From: a virus
Length of the DNA stretch: 20,998 bases
IMG/VR virus record: IMGVR_UViG_3300036846_000414
Span: 1 to 20,998 of that record
Direction: 5' to 3' (one strand)
Below, piece by piece: positions 1-20,998 of the stretch (positions are counted from its first letter, which is position 1; every line of letters begins with the position of its first letter). The notes beneath the pieces are model-generated. The model made no database searches, had not been told where the DNA came from, and saw only the letters and a list, made by a program, of their open reading frames with translations. The translations under genes were made by a program, and so were the position numbers.

Positions 1-45
1 GACGAGCTCGTCGACGCCGGCGACCGCGCGGACGGCTTCCGATGA
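1..45 (+). CDS. 3' end of small helical protein (partial)
   Basis: Only the last 14 codons and the TGA stop lie in the window. They read DELVDAGDRADGFR and match the C-terminus of the complete 88-residue protein at 15089-15355 (which ends VDALVDADRADGFR). The substitutions between the copies show that divergence already exists at the left edge. The stop overlaps the methyltransferase start as ATGA. Function is unknown; see the full-length copy. Confidence 0.75.
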   Translation, partial: DELVDAGDRADGFR

Positions 46-614
46 GGCTCGCATACGCCGACCCGCCCTATCCTGGCAACGCCGCGCTTTACGTCGGTCA
101 TCCCGACTACGCCGGCGAGGTCGACCATCGCGAGCTCGTCGACGAGCTCGTCCGCTTCGACGGCTGGGCGCTTTCGACGAGCTCCCGCTCGCTCCGATCC
201 GTCCTCTCTCTCTGTCCGCCGGAGACGCGCGTCCTCGTCTGGGCGAACTACTCGATAGGCCGCTCATGGGAGCCGGTCCTCGTCTCGCCGGCTCGCCCGA
301 TCGCCGCCACGGGAGCTCCGCGCGACTGGCTCCGCATCGACGTCGAAGCCTTCCAATGGCGACCGCGGCCGGACGGCTACGTCATCGGTCGCAAGCCGCG
401 CGAGTTCTGCGTCTGGCTCTTCCGCTGGCTCGGCGCGATCGCCGGCGGCGACGATGAGCTCGTCGACCTCTTTCCGGGCTCCGGCGCCGTCGGCGATGCC
501 TGGGAGGCCTGGAATCGTCAACCGTCTCTCTTCGAGGCGCCGCGCGAGCCCGATCGTCGCGCCGCTCGTCGCTGGCGCCGCGACCGTCCCGGATGGGTCT
601 CGCTCCGCCTATGA
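42..614 (+). CDS. DNA adenine-N6 methyltransferase-like protein (variant A)
   Basis: This 190-residue protein is probably a phage DNA methyltransferase that transfers a methyl group from S-adenosylmethionine to adenine. The catalytic DPPY motif sits at the N-terminus (residues 7-10, in YADPPYPG). A motif-I-like DLFPGSGAVGDAWE, the cofactor-binding loop, sits near residues 145-158. DPPY before FxGxG is the order of the permuted beta-class N6-adenine enzymes. The protein is shorter than a typical 250-300 residue enzyme, but both key motifs are intact. It starts in an ATGA overlap with the previous gene and ends in another with the next. Likely roles are protection from host restriction or marking of the phage genome; the target sequence cannot be read from the gene. 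The allele at 15352 differs at about nine residues. Confidence 0.85.
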   Translation: MRLAYADPPYPGNAALYVGHPDYAGEVDHRELVDELVRFDGWALSTSSRSLRSVLSLCPPETRVLVWANYSIGRSWEPVLVSPARPIAATGAPRDWLRIDVEAFQWRPRPDGYVIGRKPREFCVWLFRWLGAIAGGDDELVDLFPGSGAVGDAWEAWNRQPSLFEAPREPDRRAARRWRRDRPGWVSLRL

Positions 615-898
615 GCCGCAAACGGCAGAAGGCCGCAGGCGGCGCCATAGGAGCCGGTCTCCCGGCCTCCGAGCACGTCGTCCGGTTAGACCGTCGCCGG
701 CGATCGCCGTCTCACCCGTGGGCCTGGCGTCCGACCTGCGCCGTCTGCGGTCCGCTCGGCTCCGGCTGGACGAAGGCCGAGCAGGAGGCGACCGAGCTCG
801 GCTTCAATCACGCCTTCGAGCACGCTCGGCCGCTTCAACTCGAGCTCGAGCTCGAGCTCCCACAAGGCCGGATAAGGCGCGCGAGGATCGTCCCTTGA
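611..898 (+). CDS. Small CxxC protein with Leu-Glu repeat (variant A)
   Basis: This 95-residue protein starts at the ATG of an ATGA overlap (residues MSRKRQKAAGG). A longer in-frame start at 593 lies inside the previous gene and is less likely. The N-terminus is basic. A CAVCGPLG segment gives one CxxC pair, which could form half a zinc site, with histidines further on (GFNHAFEHAR). A low-complexity LELELEL stretch encoded by repeated GAGCTC follows. The second copy at 15921 keeps the CxxC (CGAC), the WTKAE..ATELGF core and the Leu-Glu run but has a different tail, which supports a real gene. Function is not recognised; a small DNA- or protein-binding accessory protein is possible. Confidence 0.75.
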   Translation: MSRKRQKAAGGAIGAGLPASEHVVRLDRRRRSPSHPWAWRPTCAVCGPLGSGWTKAEQEATELGFNHAFEHARPLQLELELELPQGRIRRARIVP

Positions 899-984
899 GC
901 GGCCTCCAGGCCTGGCTTCTCCTGGCCGAGGGTCCGATCCTCGTCGCCGTCCTCGTCGTCGCCTTCGGCCGCCGGCGGCGATGA
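895..984 (+). CDS. Tiny single-pass membrane protein, TTG start (variant A)
   Basis: This 29-residue frame starts at TTG in a TTGA overlap with the preceding stop and ends in an ATGA overlap with the next start. It reads as one hydrophobic helix (QAWLLLAEGPILVAVLVVAF) followed by a GRRRR tail, so the basic end should face the cytoplasm. The second copy at 16196-16276 begins with ATG and encodes 26 residues with the same pattern (QVWLALVEGPLLVVVLVLIV, then RR). Conservation of frame, hydrophobicity and the EGP motif despite base changes is the main evidence for a real gene. It could be a holin accessory or another small membrane modulator; no function is assigned. Confidence 0.6.
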   Translation: MSGLQAWLLLAEGPILVAVLVVAFGRRRR

Positions 985-1361
985 GCGTCGTCCCGGCCGC
1001 GCCGATCTACGAGAGCGGCTTCAAGGCGCTCGAGGCGAACATCGCCGAGGTCCGCCGGCGGATCGCTCGCGGCCGTCCTCGGCCCGACGACCTCGACGAC
1101 CTCGAGGCCTGCACCGAGGCGCTCGCCGAGCTCCGCGCCTTGTACCGCGGCGACCTTCGCGTCGCGCTCGAGCTCGGCGACCGGAAGGTGTCGCCGCTCG
1201 ACGTCGCGCTCCTCCATGCGGAGGAGCTCCTCGCCGATGGACTCAGCTTGAGGACGATCCCGTTCGAGACTCGCGAGGCGCTTCGCCGCGATCGCGAGGC
1301 CGACTGGTCGGTCATCCTCTACGGCCTCGCCGGCTCCGGAGGTCACTCCGCGACTACCTAA
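981..1361 (+). CDS. Conserved helical protein of unknown function (variant A)
   Basis: This 126-residue, mostly helical protein is rich in Arg, Glu and Leu. It opens with VVPAAPIYESGF, followed by a helix with IRRRIARGRPRPDDLDDL-like sequence and an LHAEELL segment, and ends with a DWSVxLYGLAG motif. The second version (16734-17141, 135 residues) is about 80% identical by eye and differs mostly in the tail. The gene starts in an ATGA overlap directly with the tiny membrane gene. In the other copy a 154-residue gene lies between these two. It is the last gene before a hairpin terminator. The family is not recognised, and no catalytic motif is visible. Confidence 0.8.
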   Translation: MSVVPAAPIYESGFKALEANIAEVRRRIARGRPRPDDLDDLEACTEALAELRALYRGDLRVALELGDRKVSPLDVALLHAEELLADGLSLRTIPFETREALRRDREADWSVILYGLAGSGGHSATT

Positions 1362-1579: not shown

Positions 1580-1597
1580 AAGGTCTCTCGACCAAGG

Positions 1598-1617
1598 TCC
1601 GACCTCACTCGGTCGGA
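1598..1617. promoter_or_regulatory. Short hairpin at the start of the identical region
   Basis: TCCGACC and GGTCGGA form a 7-bp stem with a six-base loop (TCACTC), 61 bases before the terminase ATG. The identical part of the two genome copies begins at 1590, just before it. It could be a leader structure or part of a packaging site; role unknown. Confidence 0.35.
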
Positions 1618-1677
1618 AGGCGACTCCTGCGCTCGACGCTCGCGGCCGAGCTCCGACGTCGGCGCTACCGTCTCCGC

Positions 1678-3618
1678 ATGGCGGCCAAGCAGCGAGCTCA
1701 CGGCCAGGCCTGGCGCGAGCACGTCGCTCGAGTCACGCCGGAGCTCCGCGCTCGATGCGGCGACCTCTGCGAGCTCTGCGGCGCGCCGATCGACTTCGAC
1801 GCTCCGCCTCGTTCGAGGCGATCGCCGAGCGTCGACCACGTCGTCCCGATCCATGCCGGCGGCGATCCTCTCCCGCCGGTCGAGGAGCTCCGCCTCGTTC
1901 ACTACGGATGCAACGCCAAGCGAGGCAACCGGACGAGGCGAGGCGGCGTCCGCCTCGCCGCTCCCGTCGCGCCGGCCGTCGAGCTCCGAGCTCCGGCCTC
2001 GCCGAGGCCTCGCATGTACGAGCCGCCTCGACGGTCGCGCCACGACTCGAGCCTCGACTCTCATCCGTCGCTCCTCGACGAGCTCGAGCTCGCGGCTCTC
2101 GAGCGGTCGCGCTCCGGCCGGTTTTCTAGCCCTGCGATGACCCGGCGCCAGTCGGCAAGTGTTATCTCCCCTGGAAACACCCGGAGCTCCGCCAGGACGC
2201 GCCGGCGTCCGTCGGAAGAGGTCGAGCTCGTCCCGCCTCGCCTCGAGACGCGCCGGCCTTCCGACGTCGTCGGCTCCTACGGCGCCGAGGCGGCCGGCTG
2301 GATCGAGCGCTACCTCCGCGACGACCTTCGACCCTGGCAGCGCTACGCGCTCGAGCGGGTCCTCGAGCATCGCGAGGACGGCTCGCTCCGCTGGCGCCGC
2401 GTCATCCTCACCGTCTCGCGCCAGTCCGGGAAGAGCATCCTCTCGCGCGGCCTTTGCGGCTGGCGCGTCGGCGCCGCGGACCTCTTCGACGAGCCGCAGG
2501 AGGTCCTGCACGTCGCGAACCTCCGCGCGACCGCCTCCCGTATCTGGACGCCGGCGGCGCGGACGCTCGAGGAGACGCTCGGCGTCACCGTCCGCCGCTC
2601 GAACGGTCAAGAGGCGATCGAGCTCGTCGACGGCTCGGCCTGGCGGCTCGCCGCGTCGACCCTGGACGGCGGCGTCGGCTCGAGCGTCTCGCTCGCCTTC
2701 GTCGACGAGGCCTGGCGCGTCTCCCGCGACGTCGTCGACGGCTCGATCGCGCCGACGATGCTCGAGCGCGCCTCGCCTCAACTCGTCCTCGTCTCGACGG
2801 CCGGCGACGGCGGCTCGACGCTCCTCATCGAGGACCGCGACGCCGCGATCGCGGAGCTCGACGACCCGGACGAGGCGCGCATCCTCCTCCTCGAGTGGTC
2901 GGCGCCGCCGGAGGCCTACCCGGACGACCGCGACGCCTGGCGGCTCGCCTCGCCTCACTGGACGCCGGCCAGGCTCGAGGCGCTCGAGCACGCGCACGCG
3001 ACGAGCTCCGAGAACGACTGGCGCCGCCAGTACCTCAACCAGTGGGTCCTCGCGGCCCGGTCCTGGATCGCGCCGGCTCAATGGTCGGCCGCGGCCGAGG
3101 CGGAGCTCGAGCTCCCGTCGAAGCCGGCCGGCACGCTCGCCGTCAACGACCGCGACGGTCAGCCGGGAGCCTGCGGCTACGTCCTCGCGATCGCCGACGA
3201 CGCCGGCGACGTCGTCGTCTCCGGTCGCGCCTTCCCGACCCGCCGCGCTCTCTGGGCGGAGCTCGAGCTCCTCGCCGCGCGCCGGCGAGGCCTCGTCCTC
3301 CTCCATCCGGCCTCGTTCGAGAGGCACGTCGCGAGCCTCCGCGGCGTCACGACTCAGAAGGTCGGCACCGCCGAGCAGCGCGCCGGCTACGGCCCGACGC
3401 TGGCCGCGGTCGTCGACGGCCGCCTCCGCCACGACGGCGACCCGGAGCTCACTCGGCAAATGCTCACGGCGACGCCAGTGACGATCCCGGACGTCGGGAC
3501 GACGCTCTCCGCCAGGCGGTCGCCTGGTCCGATCTTCCTCGCTCGCGCGGCCGTCTGGGCGATCGGCGCCGAGCTCCGGCCGGAGCGTCGCCGGAAGCCG
3601 CTCATCGTCTCCGCCTAG
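1678..3618 (+). CDS. terL: HNH endonuclease-large terminase subunit fusion
   Basis: This 646-residue protein combines a packaging nuclease and motor. Residues 1-85 form an HNH domain with zinc pair C31/C34, catalytic D53-H54 and the H75..C78-N79 end. Residues from about 190 onward are the terminase large subunit. Its Walker A-type loop VSRQSGKS lies at 246-253, a Walker B DEAW at 343-346, and the LVSTAGDGGS coupling motif near 370. The C-terminal nuclease region is divergent. In most phages HNH and TerL are separate genes; here no stop divides them. TerL alone could start at the in-frame ATG at 2137 (493 residues, a normal TerL size). The start at 1678 is supported by the second copy, where an in-frame stop lies upstream. 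The segment around 2120-2215 has odd codon use. No small terminase gene is seen. It heads the late operon. Confidence 0.88.
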   Translation: MAAKQRAHGQAWREHVARVTPELRARCGDLCELCGAPIDFDAPPRSRRSPSVDHVVPIHAGGDPLPPVEELRLVHYGCNAKRGNRTRRGGVRLAAPVAPAVELRAPASPRPRMYEPPRRSRHDSSLDSHPSLLDELELAALERSRSGRFSSPAMTRRQSASVISPGNTRSSARTRRRPSEEVELVPPRLETRRPSDVVGSYGAEAAGWIERYLRDDLRPWQRYALERVLEHREDGSLRWRRVILTVSRQSGKSILSRGLCGWRVGAADLFDEPQEVLHVANLRATASRIWTPAARTLEETLGVTVRRSNGQEAIELVDGSAWRLAASTLDGGVGSSVSLAFVDEAWRVSRDVVDGSIAPTMLERASPQLVLVSTAGDGGSTLLIEDRDAAIAELDDPDEARILLLEWSAPPEAYPDDRDAWRLASPHWTPARLEALEHAHATSSENDWRRQYLNQWVLAARSWIAPAQWSAAAEAELELPSKPAGTLAVNDRDGQPGACGYVLAIADDAGDVVVSGRAFPTRRALWAELELLAARRRGLVLLHPASFERHVASLRGVTTQKVGTAEQRAGYGPTLAAVVDGRLRHDGDPELTRQMLTATPVTIPDVGTTLSARRSPGPIFLARAAVWAIGAELRPERRRKPLIVSA

Positions 3619-3680
3619 CCGATCGGCCTACGCCGAACGGCCGATTGCGGCGCGAGCTCGCCGAGCTCACGCTTCGAGGG

Positions 3681-4817
3681 ATGAGACTCCGCCGCGGAGC
3701 GTCGCTCGAGCTCGAGGCCGCGAGGCCTCGCGTCCGGCTCCCGGTCGTCCGCTCCGGCACGCCGCTCGAGGTCGCCGAGGTCGCCTGGCTCACCGAGGGA
3801 GTCGGCCGCGAGGCGGCGCTCACGATCCCCGCGGTCGCCGCCTGCCGCGCCGCGATCGTCGGGACGGTCGTCCAGCTTCCGGCCTACGCCTACCGCGGCG
3901 ACGAGCGGCTCGAGCCCGGCTACCTCCTGACGAGGCCGGACCCGTCGACGACCTGGACGGCGACGATCGCCGGCACCGTCGACGACCTCCTCTTCCACGG
4001 CCGCGCCTACTGGCGCGTCCTCGAGCGCGACTCGGAAGGCTTCCCGCGGCGCGCTCGCTGGACGCCTCACCGCGACGTCACGCCGGAGACCCGCTCGACC
4101 GGCGGCTCCTACTCCGAGCTCACCGGCTACCGCGTCGCCGGCGTCCCTCGCGAGCTCGAGGTCGACGAGCTCATCCGCTTCGACGGCCAGGCTCCCGGCG
4201 TCCTCGAGACCGGAGCTCGCACGCTCGCCGCGGCGCTCGAGCTCGAGGAGGCGGCTCGCCGGCTCGCCTCCATCGAGCTCCCCGCCGGCGTCCTCAAGAA
4301 CGAAGGCACCGAGCTCGGCGAGGACGAGGCGGCCGCGCTCGTCGCCTCGTTCGAGGCGATGCGGCGCGAGCATGGCGTCGCCTTCGTCCAAGGCCTCGAG
4401 TACCAACGCGAGAACCTCAACGCCGCCGACCTCCAACTCATCGAGGCGCGTCACAACGTCTCGACCGAGGTCGCGCGGCTCTTCTCGGTCCCGGTCGCGA
4501 TGATCGGCGCCTCGCCGTCCGGCAACTCGAGCGCGCTCCTCTACTCGAACCTCAGCCAACAACTCGCGATCCTGGTCTCGTCGGCCTGCGCGCCGCATCT
4601 CAAGGTCGTCGAGTCGACCCTCTCCGACGTCGTCCCGCGCGGCCAGGCGGTCGCCTTCGACGTCCAATCGTTCCTTCGCGGCGACCCGCAGGCCGCGTCC
4701 GACTACGCGACCGGCCTCCTCGCCGCCGGCGTCATCGACGTCGCCGAGGCCCGGTCCATGCTCGGCATCCCGTCCTCGTCCGGCACGCCGCCGGACCTCA
4801 CCCCTGGGAGGCTCTAA
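3681..4817 (+). CDS. Portal protein (HK97-type)
   Basis: This 378-residue protein forms the dodecameric ring through which DNA enters the capsid. Family hallmarks are visible: an N-terminal segment ending in AACRAAIVGTVVQLPAYAY, a VDDLLFHGRAYWRV strand region, and the C-terminal core NLNAADLQLIEARHNV followed by EVARLFSVPVAMIG and the SSALLYSNLSQQ helix. The length matches small HK97-type portals. The ATG at 3681 is chosen. An in-frame TTG at 3645 would add 12 residues and cannot be excluded, because the GAGG run next to the ATG is too close to act as a good ribosome site. The gap from TerL (62 bases) contains a weak ATCGGCC/GGCCGAT inverted repeat. The stop lies two bases before the protease start. 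Confidence 0.9.
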   Translation: MRLRRGASLELEAARPRVRLPVVRSGTPLEVAEVAWLTEGVGREAALTIPAVAACRAAIVGTVVQLPAYAYRGDERLEPGYLLTRPDPSTTWTATIAGTVDDLLFHGRAYWRVLERDSEGFPRRARWTPHRDVTPETRSTGGSYSELTGYRVAGVPRELEVDELIRFDGQAPGVLETGARTLAAALELEEAARRLASIELPAGVLKNEGTELGEDEAAALVASFEAMRREHGVAFVQGLEYQRENLNAADLQLIEARHNVSTEVARLFSVPVAMIGASPSGNSSALLYSNLSQQLAILVSSACAPHLKVVESTLSDVVPRGQAVAFDVQSFLRGDPQAASDYATGLLAAGVIDVAEARSMLGIPSSSGTPPDLTPGRL

Positions 4818-4819
4818 CG

Positions 4820-6430
4820 ATGCTCCACTTCGAGCGCGAGGTCCTCGTCGCCGACCTCAACGAGAGGACGATCGAGGGAGTCATCGTCCCCTATGACGAG
4901 GTCGGCGTCATCCAAGGCCGCGAGTACCGCTTCAGGGCCGGCTCTGTCCAGCTCGGCCGCCGCGTCCCGCTCCTCGTCGACCACGATCGCGGCCGGCCGA
5001 TCGGCGTCCTCGCCGAGCTCGTCGACCAACCGACCGGCGTCCTGGCGCGCTTCCGCGTCGACGCGACCGAGGCCGGCGACGAGGCCTTGACGCAGGCCGC
5101 GTCCGGCTCGCGCGGCGCGCTCTCGGTCGGCGCCGAGGTCATCCGCTCGAGCATGGCGCGCGACGGCGTCGTCGACGTCGAGGCCGGCCTCATCCATGAG
5201 ACCTCGCTCCTCGCGCTCGGCGCCTTCGAGTCGGCGGCCGTCACCCGCGTCGCCGCCGAGCAGGACGACCCGGACGGCGACGAGCCGACCGCCGAGCCGG
5301 CCGCCGACGACGGCCACGAAGCCGAGCTCGGCGACGACGAGCAGGACGACGAGCAGGAGACGACCGCCGAGCCGGTCGAGACGTCACCCGATCAAGAGGA
5401 GCTCGAGCTCGACGAGCCCGACGACGACGACGCCGGCGCCGCCGGCGACCCCGAAGGAGGGACCATGACCGAAGCAGCATCCGCGGCGCCCGTCATCCGC
5501 GCCGAGCGCTCGCGCTCGCCGCGCGAGCTCCTCGCCGGCGAGTACGTCGAGGCGATGATCCGCGCGAGCCAGGGAGACCGCGACGCCGCGCGGCTCATCG
5601 AGGCCGCGCTCACCGAGACGCTCTCGACCGACGTCGGCGGCCTCCTGCCTCCGACCTTCGAGCGGACCGTCATCGGCGGCCGCGACGTTCACCGGCCGCT
5701 CTTCGAGACCTTCCGCTCGAGGCCGCTCCCCGGAGTCGGCCTCCTGGTCAACAAGCCGGCATGGACGACGCCGCCGGAGGGAGCATGGGCGGCCGACGTC
5801 GACGCCGACGCGACGACCTCGAAGGTCGTCGTCGGCTCTCAGTCGGCGGCCGTCATCCGCTGGGACTGGGCCGGCGCGATCCCCTGGGTCGTCGTCCAAC
5901 GCTCCGACCCGTCGATCGTCGACGAGATCTACGGCGAGGCCGTCCAGTCCTGGTATCTCGACGTCGAGGCGAAGATCGGCGGCGAGGTCCTCCAGGCGGC
6001 TCCCGGCGTCGCGACGACGCTCGGCGCCGGCATCGCGGAGTTCTACGTCGCGAGCGGCTCGGAGCGCTCGCCGGAGGTCATCCTCATGGCGCCCGACGTC
6101 TGGGGCATGTTCGCCGACGCCGGCGCGCTCACCGTCCCGCTCGGCATGGGAGGCGTCTCCGCGGCCGAGCTCACGGCGAGTTTCGCCGGCATCCCGGCGA
6201 AGAGCTCCGGCACGCTCGCGCCTGGGACGGCGATCCTCGCGACCCGGCGCGCCGTCGACGCCAGGGTCACCGAGCCGGTCCGGCTCACGGCGAACGCGAT
6301 CGGCGCGCTCAACGTCGAGCTCGCCGTCGTCGGCGAGGGGCTCTTCGACACCGACTACCCGCGCGAGCTCCTCATGCTCTCCGGCGTCACGCCGGCGACC
6401 GCGGTCGCGTCGGTCAAGGCGAAGAGCTAG
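4820..6430 (+). CDS. Prohead protease-major capsid protein fusion
   Basis: This 536-residue polyprotein carries two head functions. Residues 1-150 resemble the HK97-type prohead protease: H55 in LLVDHDRG, the likely catalytic S102 in GALSVG, and a following HETSLLALGAF segment. Residues 149-214 are extremely acidic (long Asp/Glu runs), resembling a scaffold or delta region. From M216 an HK97-fold major capsid protein follows, with the conserved TDVGGLLPPTFERTVI N-arm and a P-domain/E-loop region rich in PPEGAWAADVDADAT. A GGGAGG ribosome site precedes the start. An internal start with a stronger ribosome site at 5465 probably makes extra free capsid protein. The fusion would supply protease, scaffold and shell from one frame, with self-cleavage releasing mature capsid. 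Confidence 0.9.
   Translation: MLHFEREVLVADLNERTIEGVIVPYDEVGVIQGREYRFRAGSVQLGRRVPLLVDHDRGRPIGVLAELVDQPTGVLARFRVDATEAGDEALTQAASGSRGALSVGAEVIRSSMARDGVVDVEAGLIHETSLLALGAFESAAVTRVAAEQDDPDGDEPTAEPAADDGHEAELGDDEQDDEQETTAEPVETSPDQEELELDEPDDDDAGAAGDPEGGTMTEAASAAPVIRAERSRSPRELLAGEYVEAMIRASQGDRDAARLIEAALTETLSTDVGGLLPPTFERTVIGGRDVHRPLFETFRSRPLPGVGLLVNKPAWTTPPEGAWAADVDADATTSKVVVGSQSAAVIRWDWAGAIPWVVVQRSDPSIVDEIYGEAVQSWYLDVEAKIGGEVLQAAPGVATTLGAGIAEFYVASGSERSPEVILMAPDVWGMFADAGALTVPLGMGGVSAAELTASFAGIPAKSSGTLAPGTAILATRRAVDARVTEPVRLTANAIGALNVELAVVGEGLFDTDYPRELLMLSGVTPATAVASVKAKS
5454..5467 (+). promoter_or_regulatory. Internal ribosome site and start for free capsid protein
   Basis: AAGGAGGG at 5454-5461 lies three bases before an in-frame ATG at 5465. 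It is one of the best Shine-Dalgarno sequences in the window. Initiation here would give a 321-residue protein, MTEAASAAP onward, which is a natural major capsid N-terminus. It would allow many capsid copies per protease-capsid fusion. This is inference from sequence; the fusion frame itself is continuous. Confidence 0.6.
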
Positions 6431-13847: not shown

Positions 13848-14044
13848 CTGGCCGGCGCTCGACTCGAGGCCTCCGCGGCGTCCTCGAGCGTCGACGCGCC
13901 GAGCTCGACGAGCTCACCGGCGCCAAGACCGAGGACGAGGAGGTCGACGACGTCACTCGCCGGCCGGTCTCCTGGCCGCTCGAGCGCGACGACCCGGAGC
14001 GCGAGCGCTCGCATCCGGGAGCGTCGAAGGGAGACGGCTCCTAG
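13844..14044 (+). CDS. Small charged protein of unknown function
   Basis: This 66-residue, highly charged protein starts in an ATGA overlap and ends in a TAGTG overlap with the endolysin. It has an Arg-rich N-terminus (TGRRSTRGLRGVLERRRAELDEL), an acidic middle (TEDEEVDDV) and a disordered-looking tail. No known domain is visible. Translational coupling to both neighbours suggests it belongs to the lysis cassette, perhaps as a regulator or chaperone. An excisionase-type small basic protein is another possibility given its nearness to the integrase, but no DNA-binding motif is seen. Confidence 0.55.
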   Translation: MTGRRSTRGLRGVLERRRAELDELTGAKTEDEEVDDVTRRPVSWPLERDDPERERSHPGASKGDGS

Positions 14045-14871
14045 TGGCGCTCAAGCGTAAGAGCATCCCGTCGCCTAACTACTCGAGCCGCGGCGGCGCG
14101 ACCGTCCGGCTCATCGTCCTCCATACGGCCGAGGGAGCGCGCACGATCGAGGACCTCGGCGCGTTCTTTGCGAGCTCGAGCTCCGGCGTCTCCTCGCACG
14201 TCGGCATCGACGACAAGGACGGGACGGTCGGCGAGTACGTCAAGCGCGGCTCGAAGGCCTGGACCGCGGCCGACGCGAACCCGGTCGCCGTCCAGGCCGA
14301 GCTATGCGCCTTCGCCTCCTGGTCGCCGGCGGAATGGGACCGGCATCCGAACATGCTCGAGAACGCCGGCCGCTGGGTCGCGGAGGAGGCGGCGAAGCTC
14401 GGCGTCCCGATCACGAAGCTCTCCGCCGGCGCCGCTCAAGGCTCCGGCCGCGGCGTCTGTCAGCACGACGACCTAGGCGCCTGGGGTGGAGGTCACTGGG
14501 ATTGCGGCGGCGGCTTCCCGATCGACCGCGTCCTCTCAATCGCCCGCGACTGGGCAGACGGCTCCGGAGGGAGTGAGGACTACATGAACCCGCCTCAATG
14601 GCTTTGGGACTGGCTCCGCTGGTACTTGACGACCGACCGCGACCCGGCGAAGAGGCCGGACGCCGCGCCGGAGAAGATCCCTCAATGGGCCTGGGACTAC
14701 GAGGCCGAGGTCGAGAAGATCGGCAAGCGCTACGGCACGACCGGCGGCGAGCGCGACTGGATGGACTGGCTCGAGGCCGGCAAGCCGGACGGCGAGCGGC
14801 CCGACGTCCCGGAGACGATCCCGGAGCGTTGGTGGACCGACAACGACTACGTCCTCGAGCGCTCGCGATGA
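14044..14871 (+). CDS. Endolysin, N-acetylmuramoyl-L-alanine amidase
   Basis: This 275-residue enzyme cuts the amide bond between muramic acid and L-alanine in peptidoglycan. The amidase_2 fold is indicated by VRLIVLHTAEG (zinc ligand H27), SSHVGID (H52), and the terminal GGHWDCGGGFPID (H151, with D153/C154) that replaces the usual HxDPGxxFP. The C-terminal third (about 180-275) is Trp-rich with three repeats of a PxxWxW type (PPQWLWDW, IPQWAWDY, IPERWWTDN), a likely cell-wall-binding region. GTG start in a TAGTG overlap. No signal peptide, so a holin is needed for release; candidate membrane proteins are the 119-residue protein two genes upstream and the tiny membrane protein downstream. Confidence 0.92.
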   Translation: MALKRKSIPSPNYSSRGGATVRLIVLHTAEGARTIEDLGAFFASSSSGVSSHVGIDDKDGTVGEYVKRGSKAWTAADANPVAVQAELCAFASWSPAEWDRHPNMLENAGRWVAEEAAKLGVPITKLSAGAAQGSGRGVCQHDDLGAWGGGHWDCGGGFPIDRVLSIARDWADGSGGSEDYMNPPQWLWDWLRWYLTTDRDPAKRPDAAPEKIPQWAWDYEAEVEKIGKRYGTTGGERDWMDWLEAGKPDGERPDVPETIPERWWTDNDYVLERSR

Positions 14872-15092
14872 TCGTCGGCTCCTACTCGATCGAGGCCGGC
14901 CGGCCGCTCTCGCCGCGGATGCGAGACGTCCTCCGCTCCGCCGGCCAAGGTCGCGGCGTCACCGAGACCGCGCTCGAGCTCCGCCTCTCGACCGGCACCG
15001 TCCGCACGATCCGCGCCGCCGCGATCGCGCGGCTCGGCGTCTCGAACGTCACCGCGGCCGTCGTCGAGGCGGCGAAGCGAGGCGAGCTATGA
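14868..15092 (+). CDS. Small LuxR/GerE-type helix-turn-helix protein
   Basis: This 74-residue protein is essentially a lone LuxR-type DNA-binding domain. LSPRMRDVLRSAGQGRGVTETALELRLS matches the pattern LTPRExxVLxLxAxGxxxxEIAxxLxxS, and STGTVRTIRAAAIARLGVSN matches the recognition helix and the final KLGV segment. No sensory domain is present. It starts in an ATGA overlap with the endolysin. As the only recognised DNA-binding regulator apart from the integrase, it may control the divergent promoter region or the late operon, though phage proteins of this type may also act as terminase-like DNA-recognition factors; the missing small terminase makes that worth considering. Confidence 0.8.
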   Translation: MIVGSYSIEAGRPLSPRMRDVLRSAGQGRGVTETALELRLSTGTVRTIRAAAIARLGVSNVTAAVVEAAKRGEL

Positions 15093-15355
15093 CGGCCGGC
15101 GAGCACGCGCGCCGCGCCTCCGAGCTCCTCGAGCTCATCGAGCGCCAGGAGGACGAGCTCGACGAGCTCCTCCGCGACGATCCCGACCGCCACCTCGAGC
15201 TCATCGCCGGCGGCGCGATCAAGCGGCTCAACGCGAGCCGCCAATGGTCGGCGGAGCTCGCTCGAGCTCACGCGCTCGCCGCGATCGCGCTCTCGGTCTC
15301 GCCGGCGATCGTCGACGCGCTCGTCGACGCCGACCGCGCGGACGGCTTCCGATGA
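15089..15355 (+). CDS. Small helical protein of unknown function
   Basis: This 88-residue, helix-rich, acidic protein opens with a heptad-like stretch (ASELLELIERQEDELDELLRDD), then IAGGAIKRLNASRQWSAELARAHALAAIAL, and ends VDADRADGFR. It may form a coiled coil. Starts and ends in ATGA overlaps, between the HTH protein and the methyltransferase. The first-copy counterpart ends at 45. No catalytic motif or known family is recognised. Confidence 0.75.
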   Translation: MTAGEHARRASELLELIERQEDELDELLRDDPDRHLELIAGGAIKRLNASRQWSAELARAHALAAIALSVSPAIVDALVDADRADGFR

Positions 15356-15924
15356 GGCTCGCATACGCCGACCCGCCCTATCCTGGCAACGCCGCGCTTT
15401 ACGTCGGTCATCCCGACTACGCCGGCGAGGTCGACCATCGCGAGCTCGTCGCCGAGCTCGTCCGCTTCGACGGCTGGGCACTTTCGACGAGCTCCCGCTC
15501 GCTTCGATCCGTCCTCGCTCTGGTCCCGCCGGAGACGCGCGTCCTCATCTGGGCTAACTACTCGATCGGACGCTCATGGGAGCCGGTCCTCGTCTCGCCG
15601 GCTCGCCCGATCCCCGCCACGGGAGCCCCGCGCGACTGGCTCCGCGTCGACGTCGAGGCCTTCCAATGGCGACCTCGGCCGGACGGCTACGTCATCGGCC
15701 GCAAGCCGCGCGAGTTCTGCATCTGGCTCTTCCGCTGGCTCGGCGCGATCGCCGGCGGAGACGATGAGCTCGTCGACCTCTTCCCCGGCTCCGGCGCCGT
15801 CGGCGACGCCTGGGAGGCCTGGAATCGTCAGCCGTCTCTCTTCGAGGCGCCGCGCGAGCCCGATCGTCGCGCCGTTCGTCGCTGGCGCCGCGACCGTCCC
15901 GGATGGGTCTCGCTCCGCGTATGA
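15352..15924 (+). CDS. DNA adenine-N6 methyltransferase-like protein (variant B)
   Basis: This is the second allele of the methyltransferase at 42-614: 190 residues, starting at the ATG in the ATGA overlap (the frame is open further upstream, inside the previous gene). The DPPY and DLFPGSGAVGDAWE motifs are unchanged. About nine substitutions separate the two (for example D35A, SLC to ALV near 55-57, I to V in WLRI, terminal L to V), with most base changes at third codon positions. That pattern fits purifying selection on two functional alleles rather than decay. Confidence 0.85.
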   Translation: MRLAYADPPYPGNAALYVGHPDYAGEVDHRELVAELVRFDGWALSTSSRSLRSVLALVPPETRVLIWANYSIGRSWEPVLVSPARPIPATGAPRDWLRVDVEAFQWRPRPDGYVIGRKPREFCIWLFRWLGAIAGGDDELVDLFPGSGAVGDAWEAWNRQPSLFEAPREPDRRAVRRWRRDRPGWVSLRV

Positions 15925-16199
15925 GCCGCAAACGTCAGAAGGCCGCAGGCGGCGCCACAGGAGCCGCTCTCACGGCCTCCGAGCACGTCACGCGGTTAGT
16001 ACGTCGCCGGCGAACGCCGGAGACGCCTTGGTCCTGGCGCGCCGTCTGCGGCGCCTGCGGTCCGCTCGGCGGCGGCTGGACCAAGGCCGAGCACGAGGCG
16101 ACCGAGCTCGGCTTCGCGCACGCGCTCGAGCACGCCAGGCCGACTCAACTCGAGCTCGAGCTCGAGCTCCCGAACGGCCGGATGCGGAAGCGGCGATGA
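15921..16199 (+). CDS. Small CxxC protein with Leu-Glu repeat (variant B)
   Basis: This 92-residue allele of the gene at 611-898 keeps the MSRKRQKAAGG start, a CGAC pair preceded by another cysteine-free Arg-rich region, the WTKAEHEATELGFAHALEHAR core and the LELELEL run. It ends with LPNGRMRKRR, shorter and more basic than variant A. Histidines H in EHE, AHA and EHA follow the cysteines and could complete a metal site. ATGA overlaps on both sides. Confidence 0.75.
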   Translation: MSRKRQKAAGGATGAALTASEHVTRLVRRRRTPETPWSWRAVCGACGPLGGGWTKAEHEATELGFAHALEHARPTQLELELELPNGRMRKRR

Positions 16200-16276
16200 G
16201 CAACGCTCAAGTCTGGCTCGCTCTCGTCGAGGGTCCGCTCCTCGTCGTCGTCCTCGTCCTCATCGTCCGGCGATGA
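16196..16276 (+). CDS. Tiny single-pass membrane protein (variant B)
   Basis: This 26-residue allele of the gene at 895-984 has an ATG start. Reading: MSNAQVWLALVEGP, then LLVVVLVLIV and two arginines. The EGP kink and following hydrophobic run are the same as in variant A, while many bases differ, which argues that the peptide is made. It ends in an ATGA overlap with the 154-residue optional gene. Possible holin-like or membrane-modulating peptide; function unknown. Confidence 0.6.
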   Translation: MSNAQVWLALVEGPLLVVVLVLIVRR

Positions 16277-16737
16277 GCGCGCTCGTCGAGCTCTCGACGG
16301 AGGAGCTCCTCCTCGCCGCGATCGTCGGCGTCCGTCGGTACGTCGAGAGCATCGCCGCCGGCCACTCGAGCATCTTCGCGACCGACTGGTCCCGCCACGT
16401 CGAAGGCGCCGCGGCCGAGCTCGCCTTCGCCAAGGATCGCGGCCTCTACTGGACCGGCGTCACGCAACTCGCCCGGACCGACGTCTCCGGCGTCCAGGTT
16501 CGCCACACGACCCGACCCGACGGCTGTCTCGTCATCCGCGACCGCGACTGTCTCGCCAACGAGCCGACTGTCCTCGTCACCGGCGCCGCCGGCGTCTACC
16601 GCCTCGTCGGCTGGATACGACCGGCCTTCGCTCGCCGCGAGGAATGGCGGCGCGACCCGAACGGCTACGGCCCCGCCTACTTCGTCCCTCAATCCGCGCT
16701 CGAGACGCTCGAGGAGCTCGAGGAGCTCCTCGCATGA
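16273..16737 (+). CDS. Optional accessory protein, possible PD-(D/E)XK-like fold
   Basis: This 154-residue protein is present only in the second genome copy, inserted exactly between two genes that overlap directly in the first copy. An acidic N-terminal helix is followed by EGAAAELAFAKDRGLYW, TDVSGVQVRHT, LVIRDRD and a C-terminal YRLVGWIRPAFAR..EEWRRDPNGYGPAYFVPQSAL. The order Glu-containing helix, Asp in a turn, then a VQVR strand resembles the core of PD-(D/E)XK-type nucleases, with R in place of the usual K. The C-terminal signature is familiar from phage and prophage proteins of unknown function. Starts and ends in ATGA overlaps, so the operon stays coupled. A defence or counter-defence role would suit an optional gene beside a methyltransferase, but this is inference. 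Confidence 0.75.
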   Translation: MSALVELSTEELLLAAIVGVRRYVESIAAGHSSIFATDWSRHVEGAAAELAFAKDRGLYWTGVTQLARTDVSGVQVRHTTRPDGCLVIRDRDCLANEPTVLVTGAAGVYRLVGWIRPAFARREEWRRDPNGYGPAYFVPQSALETLEELEELLA

Positions 16738-17141
16738 GCTCGGTCGTCCCGGCCGCGCCGATCTACGAGAGCGGCTTCGGCTCGCTCGAGCGCGACCTCG
16801 CCGAGATACGCCGCAGGATCGCTCGCGGCCGGCCTCGGCCCGACGACCTCGACGACCTCGACGCGCTCACCGAGGCGCTCGCCGAGCTCCGGGCTCTGTA
16901 CCGCGCCGACCTCCGCGTCGCGCTCGAGCTCGGCGACGAGGCGACGCCGCTCGACGTCGCGCTCCTCCACGCCGAGGAGCTCCTCCACGACTCGCTCACT
17001 CTGAGGACGATCCCGTTCGAGACGCGCGAGGCGCTCCGCGCCACGCGCGAGGCCGACTGGTCGGTCGTCCTCTACGGCCTCGCCGGCGCCGCCAGGACTG
17101 GCGCGTCGACCAACGCCGGCGATGAGGCAGGCGGCCGTTAG
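16734..17141 (+). CDS. Conserved helical protein of unknown function (variant B)
   Basis: This 135-residue version of the protein at 981-1361 is about 80% identical. VVPAAPIYESGF, RRRIARGRPRPDDLDDL, the LHAEELL helix, LRTIPFETREALR and DWSV.LYGLAG are preserved. The N-terminus has one extra residue and the C-terminal tail (ARTGASTNAGDEAGGR) is different and longer. The gene is coupled by ATGA to the optional gene and is followed by a 12-bp hairpin terminator. Confidence 0.8.
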   Translation: MSSVVPAAPIYESGFGSLERDLAEIRRRIARGRPRPDDLDDLDALTEALAELRALYRADLRVALELGDEATPLDVALLHAEELLHDSLTLRTIPFETREALRATREADWSVVLYGLAGAARTGASTNAGDEAGGR

Positions 17142-17362: not shown

Positions 17363-17379
17363 AAGGGCTTAGACCAAGG

Positions 17380-17399
17380 TCCGACCTCACTCGGTCGGA
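17380..17399. promoter_or_regulatory. Short hairpin before terminase (second copy)
   Basis: Identical to the TCCGACC/GGTCGGA hairpin at 1598-1617; 60 bases before the HNH-terminase ATG. Confidence 0.35.
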
Positions 17400-17459
17400 A
17401 GGCGACTCCTGCGCTCGACGCTCGCGGCCGAGCTCCGACGTCGGCGCTACCGTCTCCGC

Positions 17460-19400
17460 ATGGCGGCCAAGCAGCGAGCTCACGGCCAGGCCTGGCGCGA
17501 GCACGTCGCTCGAGTCACGCCGGAGCTCCGCGCTCGATGCGGCGACCTCTGCGAGCTCTGCGGCGCGCCGATCGACTTCGACGCTCCGCCTCGTTCGAGG
17601 CGATCGCCGAGCGTCGACCACGTCGTCCCGATCCATGCCGGCGGCGATCCTCTCCCGCCGGTCGAGGAGCTCCGCCTCGTTCACTACGGATGCAACGCCA
17701 AGCGAGGCAACCGGACGAGGCGAGGCGGCGTCCGCCTCGCCGCTCCCGTCGCGCCGGCCGTCGAGCTCCGAGCTCCGGCCTCGCCGAGGCCTCGCATGTA
17801 CGAGCCGCCTCGACGGTCGCGCCACGACTCGAGCCTCGACTCTCATCCGTCGCTCCTCGACGAGCTCGAGCTCGCGGCTCTCGAGCGGTCGCGCTCCGGC
17901 CGGTTTTCTAGCCCTGCGATGACCCGGCGCCAGTCGGCAAGTGTTATCTCCCCTGGAAACACCCGGAGCTCCGCCAGGACGCGCCGGCGTCCGTCGGAAG
18001 AGGTCGAGCTCGTCCCGCCTCGCCTCGAGACGCGCCGGCCTTCCGACGTCGTCGGCTCCTACGGCGCCGAGGCGGCCGGCTGGATCGAGCGCTACCTCCG
18101 CGACGACCTTCGACCCTGGCAGCGCTACGCGCTCGAGCGGGTCCTCGAGCATCGCGAGGACGGCTCGCTCCGCTGGCGCCGCGTCATCCTCACCGTCTCG
18201 CGCCAGTCCGGGAAGAGCATCCTCTCGCGCGGCCTTTGCGGCTGGCGCGTCGGCGCCGCGGACCTCTTCGACGAGCCGCAGGAGGTCCTGCACGTCGCGA
18301 ACCTCCGCGCGACCGCCTCCCGTATCTGGACGCCGGCGGCGCGGACGCTCGAGGAGACGCTCGGCGTCACCGTCCGCCGCTCGAACGGTCAAGAGGCGAT
18401 CGAGCTCGTCGACGGCTCGGCCTGGCGGCTCGCCGCGTCGACCCTGGACGGCGGCGTCGGCTCGAGCGTCTCGCTCGCCTTCGTCGACGAGGCCTGGCGC
18501 GTCTCCCGCGACGTCGTCGACGGCTCGATCGCGCCGACGATGCTCGAGCGCGCCTCGCCTCAACTCGTCCTCGTCTCGACGGCCGGCGACGGCGGCTCGA
18601 CGCTCCTCATCGAGGACCGCGACGCCGCGATCGCGGAGCTCGACGACCCGGACGAGGCGCGCATCCTCCTCCTCGAGTGGTCGGCGCCGCCGGAGGCCTA
18701 CCCGGACGACCGCGACGCCTGGCGGCTCGCCTCGCCTCACTGGACGCCGGCCAGGCTCGAGGCGCTCGAGCACGCGCACGCGACGAGCTCCGAGAACGAC
18801 TGGCGCCGCCAGTACCTCAACCAGTGGGTCCTCGCGGCCCGGTCCTGGATCGCGCCGGCTCAATGGTCGGCCGCGGCCGAGGCGGAGCTCGAGCTCCCGT
18901 CGAAGCCGGCCGGCACGCTCGCCGTCAACGACCGCGACGGTCAGCCGGGAGCCTGCGGCTACGTCCTCGCGATCGCCGACGACGCCGGCGACGTCGTCGT
19001 CTCCGGTCGCGCCTTCCCGACCCGCCGCGCTCTCTGGGCGGAGCTCGAGCTCCTCGCCGCGCGCCGGCGAGGCCTCGTCCTCCTCCATCCGGCCTCGTTC
19101 GAGAGGCACGTCGCGAGCCTCCGCGGCGTCACGACTCAGAAGGTCGGCACCGCCGAGCAGCGCGCCGGCTACGGCCCGACGCTGGCCGCGGTCGTCGACG
19201 GCCGCCTCCGCCACGACGGCGACCCGGAGCTCACTCGGCAAATGCTCACGGCGACGCCAGTGACGATCCCGGACGTCGGGACGACGCTCTCCGCCAGGCG
19301 GTCGCCTGGTCCGATCTTCCTCGCTCGCGCGGCCGTCTGGGCGATCGGCGCCGAGCTCCGGCCGGAGCGTCGCCGGAAGCCGCTCATCGTCTCCGCCTAG
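17460..19400 (+). CDS. terL: HNH endonuclease-large terminase fusion (second copy)
   Basis: This 646-residue gene appears identical to 1678-3618. Here the upstream frame is stopped by TAG at 17370-17372, so the ATG at 17460 is the first possible ATG/GTG/TTG start; this fixes the start in both copies. The same internal ATG for a TerL-only product is at 17919. HNH, Walker A and DEAW motifs are as in the first copy. The lack of any change across nearly 2 kb, next to a diverged region, means very recent duplication, homogenisation or the same molecule read twice. Confidence 0.88.
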   Translation: MAAKQRAHGQAWREHVARVTPELRARCGDLCELCGAPIDFDAPPRSRRSPSVDHVVPIHAGGDPLPPVEELRLVHYGCNAKRGNRTRRGGVRLAAPVAPAVELRAPASPRPRMYEPPRRSRHDSSLDSHPSLLDELELAALERSRSGRFSSPAMTRRQSASVISPGNTRSSARTRRRPSEEVELVPPRLETRRPSDVVGSYGAEAAGWIERYLRDDLRPWQRYALERVLEHREDGSLRWRRVILTVSRQSGKSILSRGLCGWRVGAADLFDEPQEVLHVANLRATASRIWTPAARTLEETLGVTVRRSNGQEAIELVDGSAWRLAASTLDGGVGSSVSLAFVDEAWRVSRDVVDGSIAPTMLERASPQLVLVSTAGDGGSTLLIEDRDAAIAELDDPDEARILLLEWSAPPEAYPDDRDAWRLASPHWTPARLEALEHAHATSSENDWRRQYLNQWVLAARSWIAPAQWSAAAEAELELPSKPAGTLAVNDRDGQPGACGYVLAIADDAGDVVVSGRAFPTRRALWAELELLAARRRGLVLLHPASFERHVASLRGVTTQKVGTAEQRAGYGPTLAAVVDGRLRHDGDPELTRQMLTATPVTIPDVGTTLSARRSPGPIFLARAAVWAIGAELRPERRRKPLIVSA

Positions 19401-19462
19401 CCGATCGGCCTACGCCGAACGGCCGATTGCGGCGCGAGCTCGCCGAGCTCACGCTTCGAGGG

Positions 19463-20599
19463 ATGAGACTCCGCCGCGGAGCGTCGCTCGAGCTCGAGGC
19501 CGCGAGGCCTCGCGTCCGGCTCCCGGTCGTCCGCTCCGGCACGCCGCTCGAGGTCGCCGAGGTCGCCTGGCTCACCGAGGGAGTCGGCCGCGAGGCGGCG
19601 CTCACGATCCCCGCGGTCGCCGCCTGCCGCGCCGCGATCGTCGGGACGGTCGTCCAGCTTCCGGCCTACGCCTACCGCGGCGACGAGCGGCTCGAGCCCG
19701 GCTACCTCCTGACGAGGCCGGACCCGTCGACGACCTGGACGGCGACGATCGCCGGCACCGTCGACGACCTCCTCTTCCACGGCCGCGCCTACTGGCGCGT
19801 CCTCGAGCGCGACTCGGAAGGCTTCCCGCGGCGCGCTCGCTGGACGCCTCACCGCGACGTCACGCCGGAGACCCGCTCGACCGGCGGCTCCTACTCCGAG
19901 CTCACCGGCTACCGCGTCGCCGGCGTCCCTCGCGAGCTCGAGGTCGACGAGCTCATCCGCTTCGACGGCCAGGCTCCCGGCGTCCTCGAGACCGGAGCTC
20001 GCACGCTCGCCGCGGCGCTCGAGCTCGAGGAGGCGGCTCGCCGGCTCGCCTCCATCGAGCTCCCCGCCGGCGTCCTCAAGAACGAAGGCACCGAGCTCGG
20101 CGAGGACGAGGCGGCCGCGCTCGTCGCCTCGTTCGAGGCGATGCGGCGCGAGCATGGCGTCGCCTTCGTCCAAGGCCTCGAGTACCAACGCGAGAACCTC
20201 AACGCCGCCGACCTCCAACTCATCGAGGCGCGTCACAACGTCTCGACCGAGGTCGCGCGGCTCTTCTCGGTCCCGGTCGCGATGATCGGCGCCTCGCCGT
20301 CCGGCAACTCGAGCGCGCTCCTCTACTCGAACCTCAGCCAACAACTCGCGATCCTGGTCTCGTCGGCCTGCGCGCCGCATCTCAAGGTCGTCGAGTCGAC
20401 CCTCTCCGACGTCGTCCCGCGCGGCCAGGCGGTCGCCTTCGACGTCCAATCGTTCCTTCGCGGCGACCCGCAGGCCGCGTCCGACTACGCGACCGGCCTC
20501 CTCGCCGCCGGCGTCATCGACGTCGCCGAGGCCCGGTCCATGCTCGGCATCCCGTCCTCGTCCGGCACGCCGCCGGACCTCACCCCTGGGAGGCTCTAA
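19463..20599 (+). CDS. Portal protein (second copy)
   Basis: Identical to 3681-4817 as far as can be seen: 378 residues with the same portal core (NLNAADLQLIEARHNV, LFSVPVAMIG). The same alternative TTG start lies 36 bases upstream. It is followed after two bases by the protease-capsid gene. Confidence 0.9.
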   Translation: MRLRRGASLELEAARPRVRLPVVRSGTPLEVAEVAWLTEGVGREAALTIPAVAACRAAIVGTVVQLPAYAYRGDERLEPGYLLTRPDPSTTWTATIAGTVDDLLFHGRAYWRVLERDSEGFPRRARWTPHRDVTPETRSTGGSYSELTGYRVAGVPRELEVDELIRFDGQAPGVLETGARTLAAALELEEAARRLASIELPAGVLKNEGTELGEDEAAALVASFEAMRREHGVAFVQGLEYQRENLNAADLQLIEARHNVSTEVARLFSVPVAMIGASPSGNSSALLYSNLSQQLAILVSSACAPHLKVVESTLSDVVPRGQAVAFDVQSFLRGDPQAASDYATGLLAAGVIDVAEARSMLGIPSSSGTPPDLTPGRL

Positions 20600-20601
20600 C
20601 G

Positions 20602-20998
20602 ATGCTCCACTTCGAGCGCGAGGTCCTCGTCGCCGACCTCAACGAGAGGACGATCGAGGGAGTCATCGTCCCCTATGACGAGGTCGGCGTCATCCAAGGC
20701 CGCGAGTACCGCTTCAGGGCCGGCTCTGTCCAGCTCGGCCGCCGCGTCCCGCTCCTCGTCGACCACGATCGCGGCCGGCCGATCGGCGTCCTCGCCGAGC
20801 TCGTCGACCAACCGACCGGCGTCCTGGCGCGCTTCCGCGTCGACGCGACCGAGGCCGGCGACGAGGCCTTGACGCAGGCCGCGTCCGGCTCGCGCGGCGC
20901 GCTCTCGGTCGGCGCCGAGGTCATCCGCTCGAGCATGGCGCGCGACGGCGTCGTCGACGTCGAGGCCGGCCTCATCCATGAGACCTCGCTCCTCGCGC
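20602..20998 (+). CDS. Prohead protease-capsid fusion, 5' part only (second copy)
   Basis: The window ends after 132 codons of this gene, within the protease domain. The sequence equals 4820-5216, including H55 and the GALSVG serine. The truncation is the window edge, not a biological break. Confidence 0.9.
   Translation, partial: MLHFEREVLVADLNERTIEGVIVPYDEVGVIQGREYRFRAGSVQLGRRVPLLVDHDRGRPIGVLAELVDQPTGVLARFRVDATEAGDEALTQAASGSRGALSVGAEVIRSSMARDGVVDVEAGLIHETSLLA

What the first reader, a model, noticed from the sequence alone, without database searches (positions are those of the whole stretch)
16273..16737. Whole-gene presence/absence at an ATGA junction between two genome copies
The 154-residue gene sits between the tiny membrane gene and the helical-protein gene in copy two. 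In copy one those two genes overlap directly by ATGA at 981-984. The inserted unit starts and ends with ATGAGC, so gain or loss leaves perfect translational coupling. This suggests a cassette mechanism in which short start-stop overlap repeats act as recombination joints. The optional gene lies next to a methyltransferase and has a nuclease-like motif order, as expected of defence or counter-defence cargo.
Basis: partly seen in the sequence, partly recalled or inferred. Interest (0 to 1): 0.62.

Follow-up and report, generated by a model that had tools for sequence, protein, structure and literature searches.

The report
Optional nuclease-like gene in phage operon
A small bacterial virus carries, in one of two strain versions of the same stretch of DNA, an extra gene that is predicted to fold like a DNA-cutting enzyme and fits exactly between two overlapping genes; this looks like ordinary whole-gene swapping in phages, kept in register by overlapping start and stop codons, rather than a new recombination device.

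Summary
A 461-bp unit (one 154-aa gene, 16273-16737) sits between two genes that overlap by ATGA in the other copy. The 'two genome copies' are one ~15.8-kb cos-type phage genome read 1.33 times in a virus record: 1590-5216 equals 17372-20998 exactly (3627 of 3627), while the right arms differ, most likely two strain haplotypes in one contig. The locus really varies: in 6 haplotypes that keep both flanking genes the joint has 5 states (empty twice, a 42-aa ORF, a phrog_12600 gene, a tiny membrane gene, the tiny gene plus the 154-aa gene). The 154-aa protein belongs to phrog_18407 (unknown function); two AlphaFold models resemble PD-(D/E)XK nucleases, but the signature lysine is arginine in 15 of 15 aligned proteins. 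The proposed mechanism (ATGA repeats as recombination joints) is not supported: 4-bp start-stop overlaps are the commonest junction throughout the genome and ATGAGC follows from codon bias. Selection for translational coupling acting on ordinary mosaic exchange explains the pattern. No link to the methyltransferase was found. New member of a known kind: single-gene phage mosaicism with an uncharacterised nuclease-like cargo family.

The parts
16273..16737 (+). optional 154-aa gene, phrog_18407 family, PD-(D/E)XK-like predicted fold; invariant E44, E49, D70, R77, D92
16196..16276 (+). 26-aa tiny hydrophobic gene upstream of the optional gene (copy two)
16734..17141 (+). 135-aa helical-protein gene downstream (copy two)
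15921..16199 (+). 92-aa gene (copy two), left anchor of the variable joint
15352..15924 (+). methyltransferase-like gene (DPPY and FPGxG motifs; weak phrog_56 match), also an optional unit at an ATGA joint
15089..15355 (+). 88-aa gene, upstream neighbour in the overlap chain
14868..15092 (+). LuxR-like HTH gene (Pfam GerE), upstream border of the accessory region
42..614 (+). methyltransferase-like gene, copy one
611..898 (+). homolog of the 92-aa gene, copy one (95 aa)
895..984 (+). tiny hydrophobic gene, copy one (TTG start)
981..1361 (+). helical-protein gene, copy one; direct ATGA overlap with the tiny gene at 981-984 (empty site)
1590..5216 (.). stretch identical to 17372-20998 (wrap-around redundancy of a ~15.78-kb genome)
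17372..20998 (.). second copy of the identical stretch, ends at the end of the record
17460..19400 (+). HNH-terminase ORF that spans the inferred cos
17924..17932 (.). inferred cos: about 9 nt between the right and left physical ends of relatives (also 2142-2150)

Best explanation
The gene is an optional module in the hypervariable right arm (LuxR-like gene to cos) of a small, about 15.8-kb, cos-type phage that carries a serine integrase. Genes of this operon are chained by 4-bp NTGA stop-start overlaps. Whole genes are gained and lost by ordinary phage recombination (illegitimate or between diverged copies); products that restore the overlap are favoured because downstream genes depend on translation re-initiation, and this makes visible breakpoints fall on ATGA. 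The two versions in the record are two strain haplotypes joined when one genome was assembled. The 154-aa product is most likely a divergent PD-(D/E)XK-like DNA-binding or DNA-cutting protein, with counter-defence or exclusion as the most likely benefit. Shown: presence/absence, variability of the joint, overlap chain, family membership, predicted fold. Inferred: chimeric assembly, translational coupling, selection, DNA-related function.
For: Six haplotypes with both flanking genes show five joint contents, with NTGA at every border (genes listed). NTGA overlap is the commonest junction: 12 of 22 gene ends of the unit. The gene's composition matches the phage: GC 0.705, GC3 0.890, GAGCTC 10.8 per kb. 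Redundancy is exact over 3627 bp, while the best local DNA alignments of the 8 relatives compared are 65-89% identical. Full-length relatives are 15007-15891 bp with a shared terminus. Fold: mean pLDDT 85.9, pTM 0.82; best VIA matches D212 (Z 7.0, rmsd 4.2, 113 aligned), Hjc 1gef (Z 7.0, rmsd 2.8, 93), Eco15I (Z 6.7, rmsd 3.5, 114); a second model, from another family member, gives the same set, with unrelated rows only from Z 3.3 down. Literature: single-gene modules are common in mycobacteriophages (PMC3029335, passages); ATGA or TGATG overlaps coupled translation in 13 of 14 tested pairs (PMC6728339, abstract); IMG/VR contigs with repeated genomes are probably assembly artefacts (PMC8116208, passages).
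Against: Only the two arms of this record directly flank the insertion, so gain in one or loss in the other is unresolved. Reads are not available, so a real tandem arrangement or a recent recombinant is not excluded. Foldseek against PDB gave no match at E <= 0.001 (best 0.21), Z stays under 8, and the signature lysine is arginine in 15 of 15 aligned proteins. No functional family match beyond an unnamed PHROG.
Confidence: 0.66

Rival explanations
1. Cassette mechanism of the first reader: short ATGA(GC) start-stop repeats are themselves the recombination sites, so that coupled genes are exchanged as cassettes.
For: Both ends of the unit carry ATGAGC; different genes occupy the joint; another optional unit, the methyltransferase-like gene, also sits at an ATGA joint.
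Against: NTGA is present at most joints, including those in parts not seen to vary; codon 2 AGC is simply the commonest (11 of 24); some joints are TTGA or GTGA; ATGAGC also occurs widely off-joint (31 in the window); 4-6 bp is far below what homologous recombination is known to need (recalled).
Confidence: 0.1
2. Free-standing homing endonuclease: the gene codes for a PD-(D/E)XK nuclease that cuts the empty ATGA junction and copies itself into it.
For: Optional single gene, sharp borders, nuclease-like fold; the homing enzyme I-Ssp6803I is among the matches (Z 6.1, rmsd 3.2, 100 aligned); homologs in varied contexts.
Against: Other, unrelated genes fill the same joint; the closest in-group homolog (L003, 41%) sits at a different joint without these flanking genes; the catalytic lysine is replaced.
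Confidence: 0.1
3. Nuclease and methyltransferase form a restriction-modification-like pair carried for defence or exclusion.
For: Both are present in copy two, two genes apart.
Against: Copy one has the methyltransferase-like gene alone; 0 of 80 other methyltransferase loci hold the nuclease-like family and 0 of 19 loci with the nuclease-like family (18 distinct) hold the methyltransferase; no PADLOC match.
Confidence: 0.04
4. Artefact: the inserted segment was misassembled from an unrelated phage into this contig.
For: The contig is redundant and joins two haplotypes.
Against: Homologous flanks on both sides, intact frame and overlaps on both sides, same codon and GAGCTC signature.
Confidence: 0.05

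Closest known systems
Single-gene mosaic modules of mycobacteriophages and other actinobacteriophages (PMC3029335, passages)
   Same: one gene per module, present in one genome and absent in a near relative
   Different: here the module is set in a chain of 4-bp overlaps, and both states appear in one record
phrog_18407 (unknown function)
   Same: all 15 aligned proteins match it; Salinibacter and Synechococcus phage proteins are found by a relative's search
   Different: no function is known; this member is in a very small cos-type phage
PD-(D/E)XK nucleases: D212, Hjc, Eco15I/NhoI, DpnI, I-Ssp6803I
   Same: predicted fold and conserved carboxylates
   Different: arginine instead of the motif III lysine; no sequence match to solved structures
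Arthrobacter cluster AN phages (PMC5513430, passages)
   Same: similar size (15.5 kb average); many Arthrobacter phages of that paper have 3' cohesive ends of 9-13 bases
   Different: that paper calls its phages primarily lytic, this one has an integrase; relationship to cluster AN not tested

Membership tests
phrog_18407 | profile match over the whole protein | tested here: met
   E 1.8e-19, residues 4-152, profile 3-161 of 162; 15 of 15 aligned proteins match
PD-(D/E)XK superfamily | restriction-endonuclease-like core fold | tested here: met
   two models; best Z 7.0 and 5.7, with the top-ranked rows all nucleases of this superfamily by name or by recall. Caveat: Z under 8 and no significant Foldseek hit in PDB
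PD-(D/E)XK superfamily | catalytic carboxylates (motif I E, motif II D, motif III D/E/Q) | tested here: inconclusive
   E44, E49 and D70 invariant, position 75 is Q, E or D in 15 of 15, but their place in an active site was not superposed
PD-(D/E)XK superfamily | motif III lysine | tested here: not met
   R77 in 15 of 15; PMC1913061 (passages) describes families with this lysine replaced or migrated, so the protein is called PD-(D/E)XK-like, not filed as an active member
Classical moron | extra gene absent in a close relative | tested here: met
Classical moron | own promoter and terminator around the gene (recalled definition) | tested here: not met
   the unit runs from start codon to stop-start overlap with no intergenic space
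Recombination at conserved boundary sequences | conserved sequence at module borders beyond what coding requires | tested here: not met
   only NTGA plus a common second codon is shared
Restriction-modification pair | linked nuclease and methyltransferase | tested here: not met
   no co-occurrence in 80 and 19 loci
Free-standing homing endonuclease | cuts the empty site | not testable with these tools
   needs purified protein or mixed infection

The most novel reading that the evidence does not exclude
The right arm next to cos is a standing exchange slot for DNA-modifying and DNA-cutting cargo (the methyltransferase-like gene; the phrog_12600 gene of L002, whose relative in Rhodobacter phage Ebor is annotated putative DNA methylase; and the phrog_18407 nuclease-like gene), used for counter-defence or exclusion, where the start-stop overlap gives each incoming gene immediate coupled expression. 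phrog_18407 would then be a new phage-borne nuclease-like counter-defence or exclusion family.
Probability: 0.25. Interest if true: 0.5.

Novelty: new member of a known kind. Interest (0 to 1): 0.3.

Why it matters
It gives an unusually clean natural pair (with and without one gene, same joint, frames kept) in a minimal phage genome, so the cost and benefit of one accessory gene and of ATGA coupling could be tested directly. It also points to phrog_18407 as an uncharacterised, widely spread phage family with a nuclease-like fold that is ready for biochemistry.

Tried and rejected
Tried: a single-sequence scan of viral contigs with the 154-aa protein found no relative, and tblastn in the phage collection none; a two-sequence profile then found 14 loci, and a distant homolog used as query found 9 phage records. 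Genome-contig scans with the terminase and with the 15-member family found none, so the host stays unknown. Pfam, NCBIfam and PADLOC gave nothing useful for the gene (PF12183 NotI at E 0.15 for one homolog, below its cut-off). Sequence search of solved structures gave only E 0.35 and 1.1. The helical protein has no match in the phage collection. Paper search for the PHROG number: 0 papers.

Rejected: ATGA as recombination joint; restriction-modification pair; two true genome copies. Left open: tandem prophage or recent recombinant instead of chimeric assembly.

Duplicates in the counts: homologs L063-L065 are near-identical and L066/L067 alike, so '15 of 15' counts fewer independent events. 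L004 and L005 are near-identical in this region; L059 and L160 are the same contig as L003; L038, L043, L051 and L161 the same as L022; L156 the same as L034. One search kept the best 80 of 92 loci.

Full report
What the window is. The window is the whole of a virus record, 20998 bases. Positions 1590-5216 equal 17372-20998 at 3627 of 3627 positions with an offset of 15782. Before that, the two right arms differ: methyltransferase-like gene 95.5% identical, 92-aa gene 83.2%, tiny gene 75.3%, helical gene 87.5%, following intergenic stretch 83.1%. Relatives found through the terminase (23 loci) include records of 15007, 15198, 15515, 15572, 15891 and 16058 bp. In 9 of the 17 contigs whose terminase-side starts I printed, the contig begins at the same place (window 17933 or 2151), and three right ends stop about 9 bases earlier. 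The natural unit is therefore one genome of about 15.78 kb with cohesive-type ends (inferred), and the record reads it 1.33 times. In the 8 relatives compared, the best local DNA alignments to the unit are 65-89% identical, so an exact repeat next to diverged arms is best read as one genome whose two strain haplotypes were joined in assembly. CheckV's authors describe IMG/VR contigs with repeated genomes as probable assembly artefacts (PMC8116208, passages). Without reads this remains an inference.

The observation. The ORF at 16273-16737, its two ATGA overlaps and the direct ATGA overlap at 981-984 in the other arm are all there. The unit is 461 bp, plus a 3-base difference after the second ATGAGC. 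It is a clean presence/absence of one gene.

Does the joint vary? Six haplotypes keep both flanking genes: the two arms here, L002, L022, L035 and L036. The joint holds nothing in L022 (TTGA) and L036 (ATGA), a 42-aa reading frame in L035, a 198-aa phrog_12600 gene in L002 (E 2e-55), the tiny membrane gene in copy one, and the tiny gene plus the 154-aa gene in copy two. Of these 11 borders 9 are ATGA and 2 are TTGA. The methyltransferase-like gene is likewise present only in the two arms here, at a joint that in L022 and L036 is a direct ATGA overlap of its neighbours. In the wider group the stretch from the LuxR-like gene to the HNH gene holds still other genes (L034, L165-L168, L004/L005, L003). 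The region is an accessory arm next to cos.

Is ATGA a recombination joint? NTGA overlaps end 12 of 22 genes of the unit, several of them in the structural-gene part, and follow the LuxR-like gene in 12 of 14 haplotypes. Codon 2 is AGC in 11 of 24 joints, so two random joints share codon 2 with probability 0.27. ATGAGC occurs 31 times in the window against 6.5 expected, mostly away from joints. The two ends of the unit share nothing else: 8 of 30 bases upstream. Coupled translation at such overlaps is established (PMC6728339, abstract), and single-gene modules, mostly without recognisable boundary sequences, are common in mycobacteriophages (PMC3029335, passages). Selection on the outcome explains the joints without a special recombination step. 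The data cannot exclude rare use of very short homology.

The protein. It matches only phrog_18407 (E 1.8e-19). A profile found 14 loci; all 15 aligned proteins match that PHROG. Invariant residues include R22, W39, E44, E49, D70, R77, D92, G104 and G113; position 75 is Q, E or D. The AlphaFold model (pLDDT 85.9, pTM 0.82) has no significant PDB match by Foldseek (best NhoI, E 0.21) but 47 viral predicted structures at E <= 0.001, nearly all without a telling name, one called HNH endonuclease and one restriction endonuclease. VIA alignment ranks D212, Hjc, Eco15I/NhoI, SPARDA, I-Ssp6803I and DpnI first (Z 7.0 to 6.0). A model of a distant member gives the same families, with unrelated rows only from Z 3.3 down. 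So the nuclease-like fold is likely; activity is uncertain, because arginine stands where the signature lysine is expected in 15 of 15. PMC1913061 (passages) reports families with this lysine replaced or migrated.

Context and function. In annotated phages the homologs lie beside terL and portal (S-CBS4), after a primase and a hypothetical gene downstream of terL (S-CBS2), or a few genes before a polymerase III beta-subunit gene (Salinibacter phages). In relative L003 the homolog lies between a 102-aa gene and a lysin-like gene near the integrase, again with GTGA and ATGA borders. The methyltransferase-like family (DPPY and FPGxG motifs conserved in most of 81 sequences) was not found with it: 0 of 80 loci and 0 of 19 loci, 18 distinct. 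I commit to a DNA-acting accessory protein, nuclease or DNA-binding, with counter-defence or exclusion as the most likely benefit; that last step is a guess.

Verdict. It is ordinary phage mosaicism with an uncharacterised cargo family.

Noticed in passing
17460-19400 and 1678-3618; inferred cos about 17924-17932 and 2142-2150: An HNH domain and the large terminase form one open reading frame that runs straight across the inferred cos site; the frame is open in the window and in L002, L022, L003, L004, L005 and L006. In virion DNA the two halves would lie at opposite ends, so the fused ORF would exist only after the ends join. Two paper searches (listings only) showed no title or abstract describing this.
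   Followed up: partly
42-614 and 15352-15924: Methyltransferase-like gene with 92 relatives in viral contigs, none seen in the other members of this phage group examined; DPPY and FPGxG motifs conserved but only weak library matches.
   Followed up: partly
L002:1691-2287: phrog_12600 gene at the same joint; relatives in very different phages, including microviruses and small Xanthomonas and Rhodobacter records, one annotated putative DNA methylase.
   Followed up: partly
whole window: Many GAGCTC and CTCGAG sites, up to 26 GAGCTC per kb in one gene; cause not examined.
   Followed up: no
14041-14871: The amidase endolysin has close relatives (67-79%) in other viral contigs, several of them 19-47 kb and otherwise without matches to this phage, which suggests a shared host range.
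   Followed up: no
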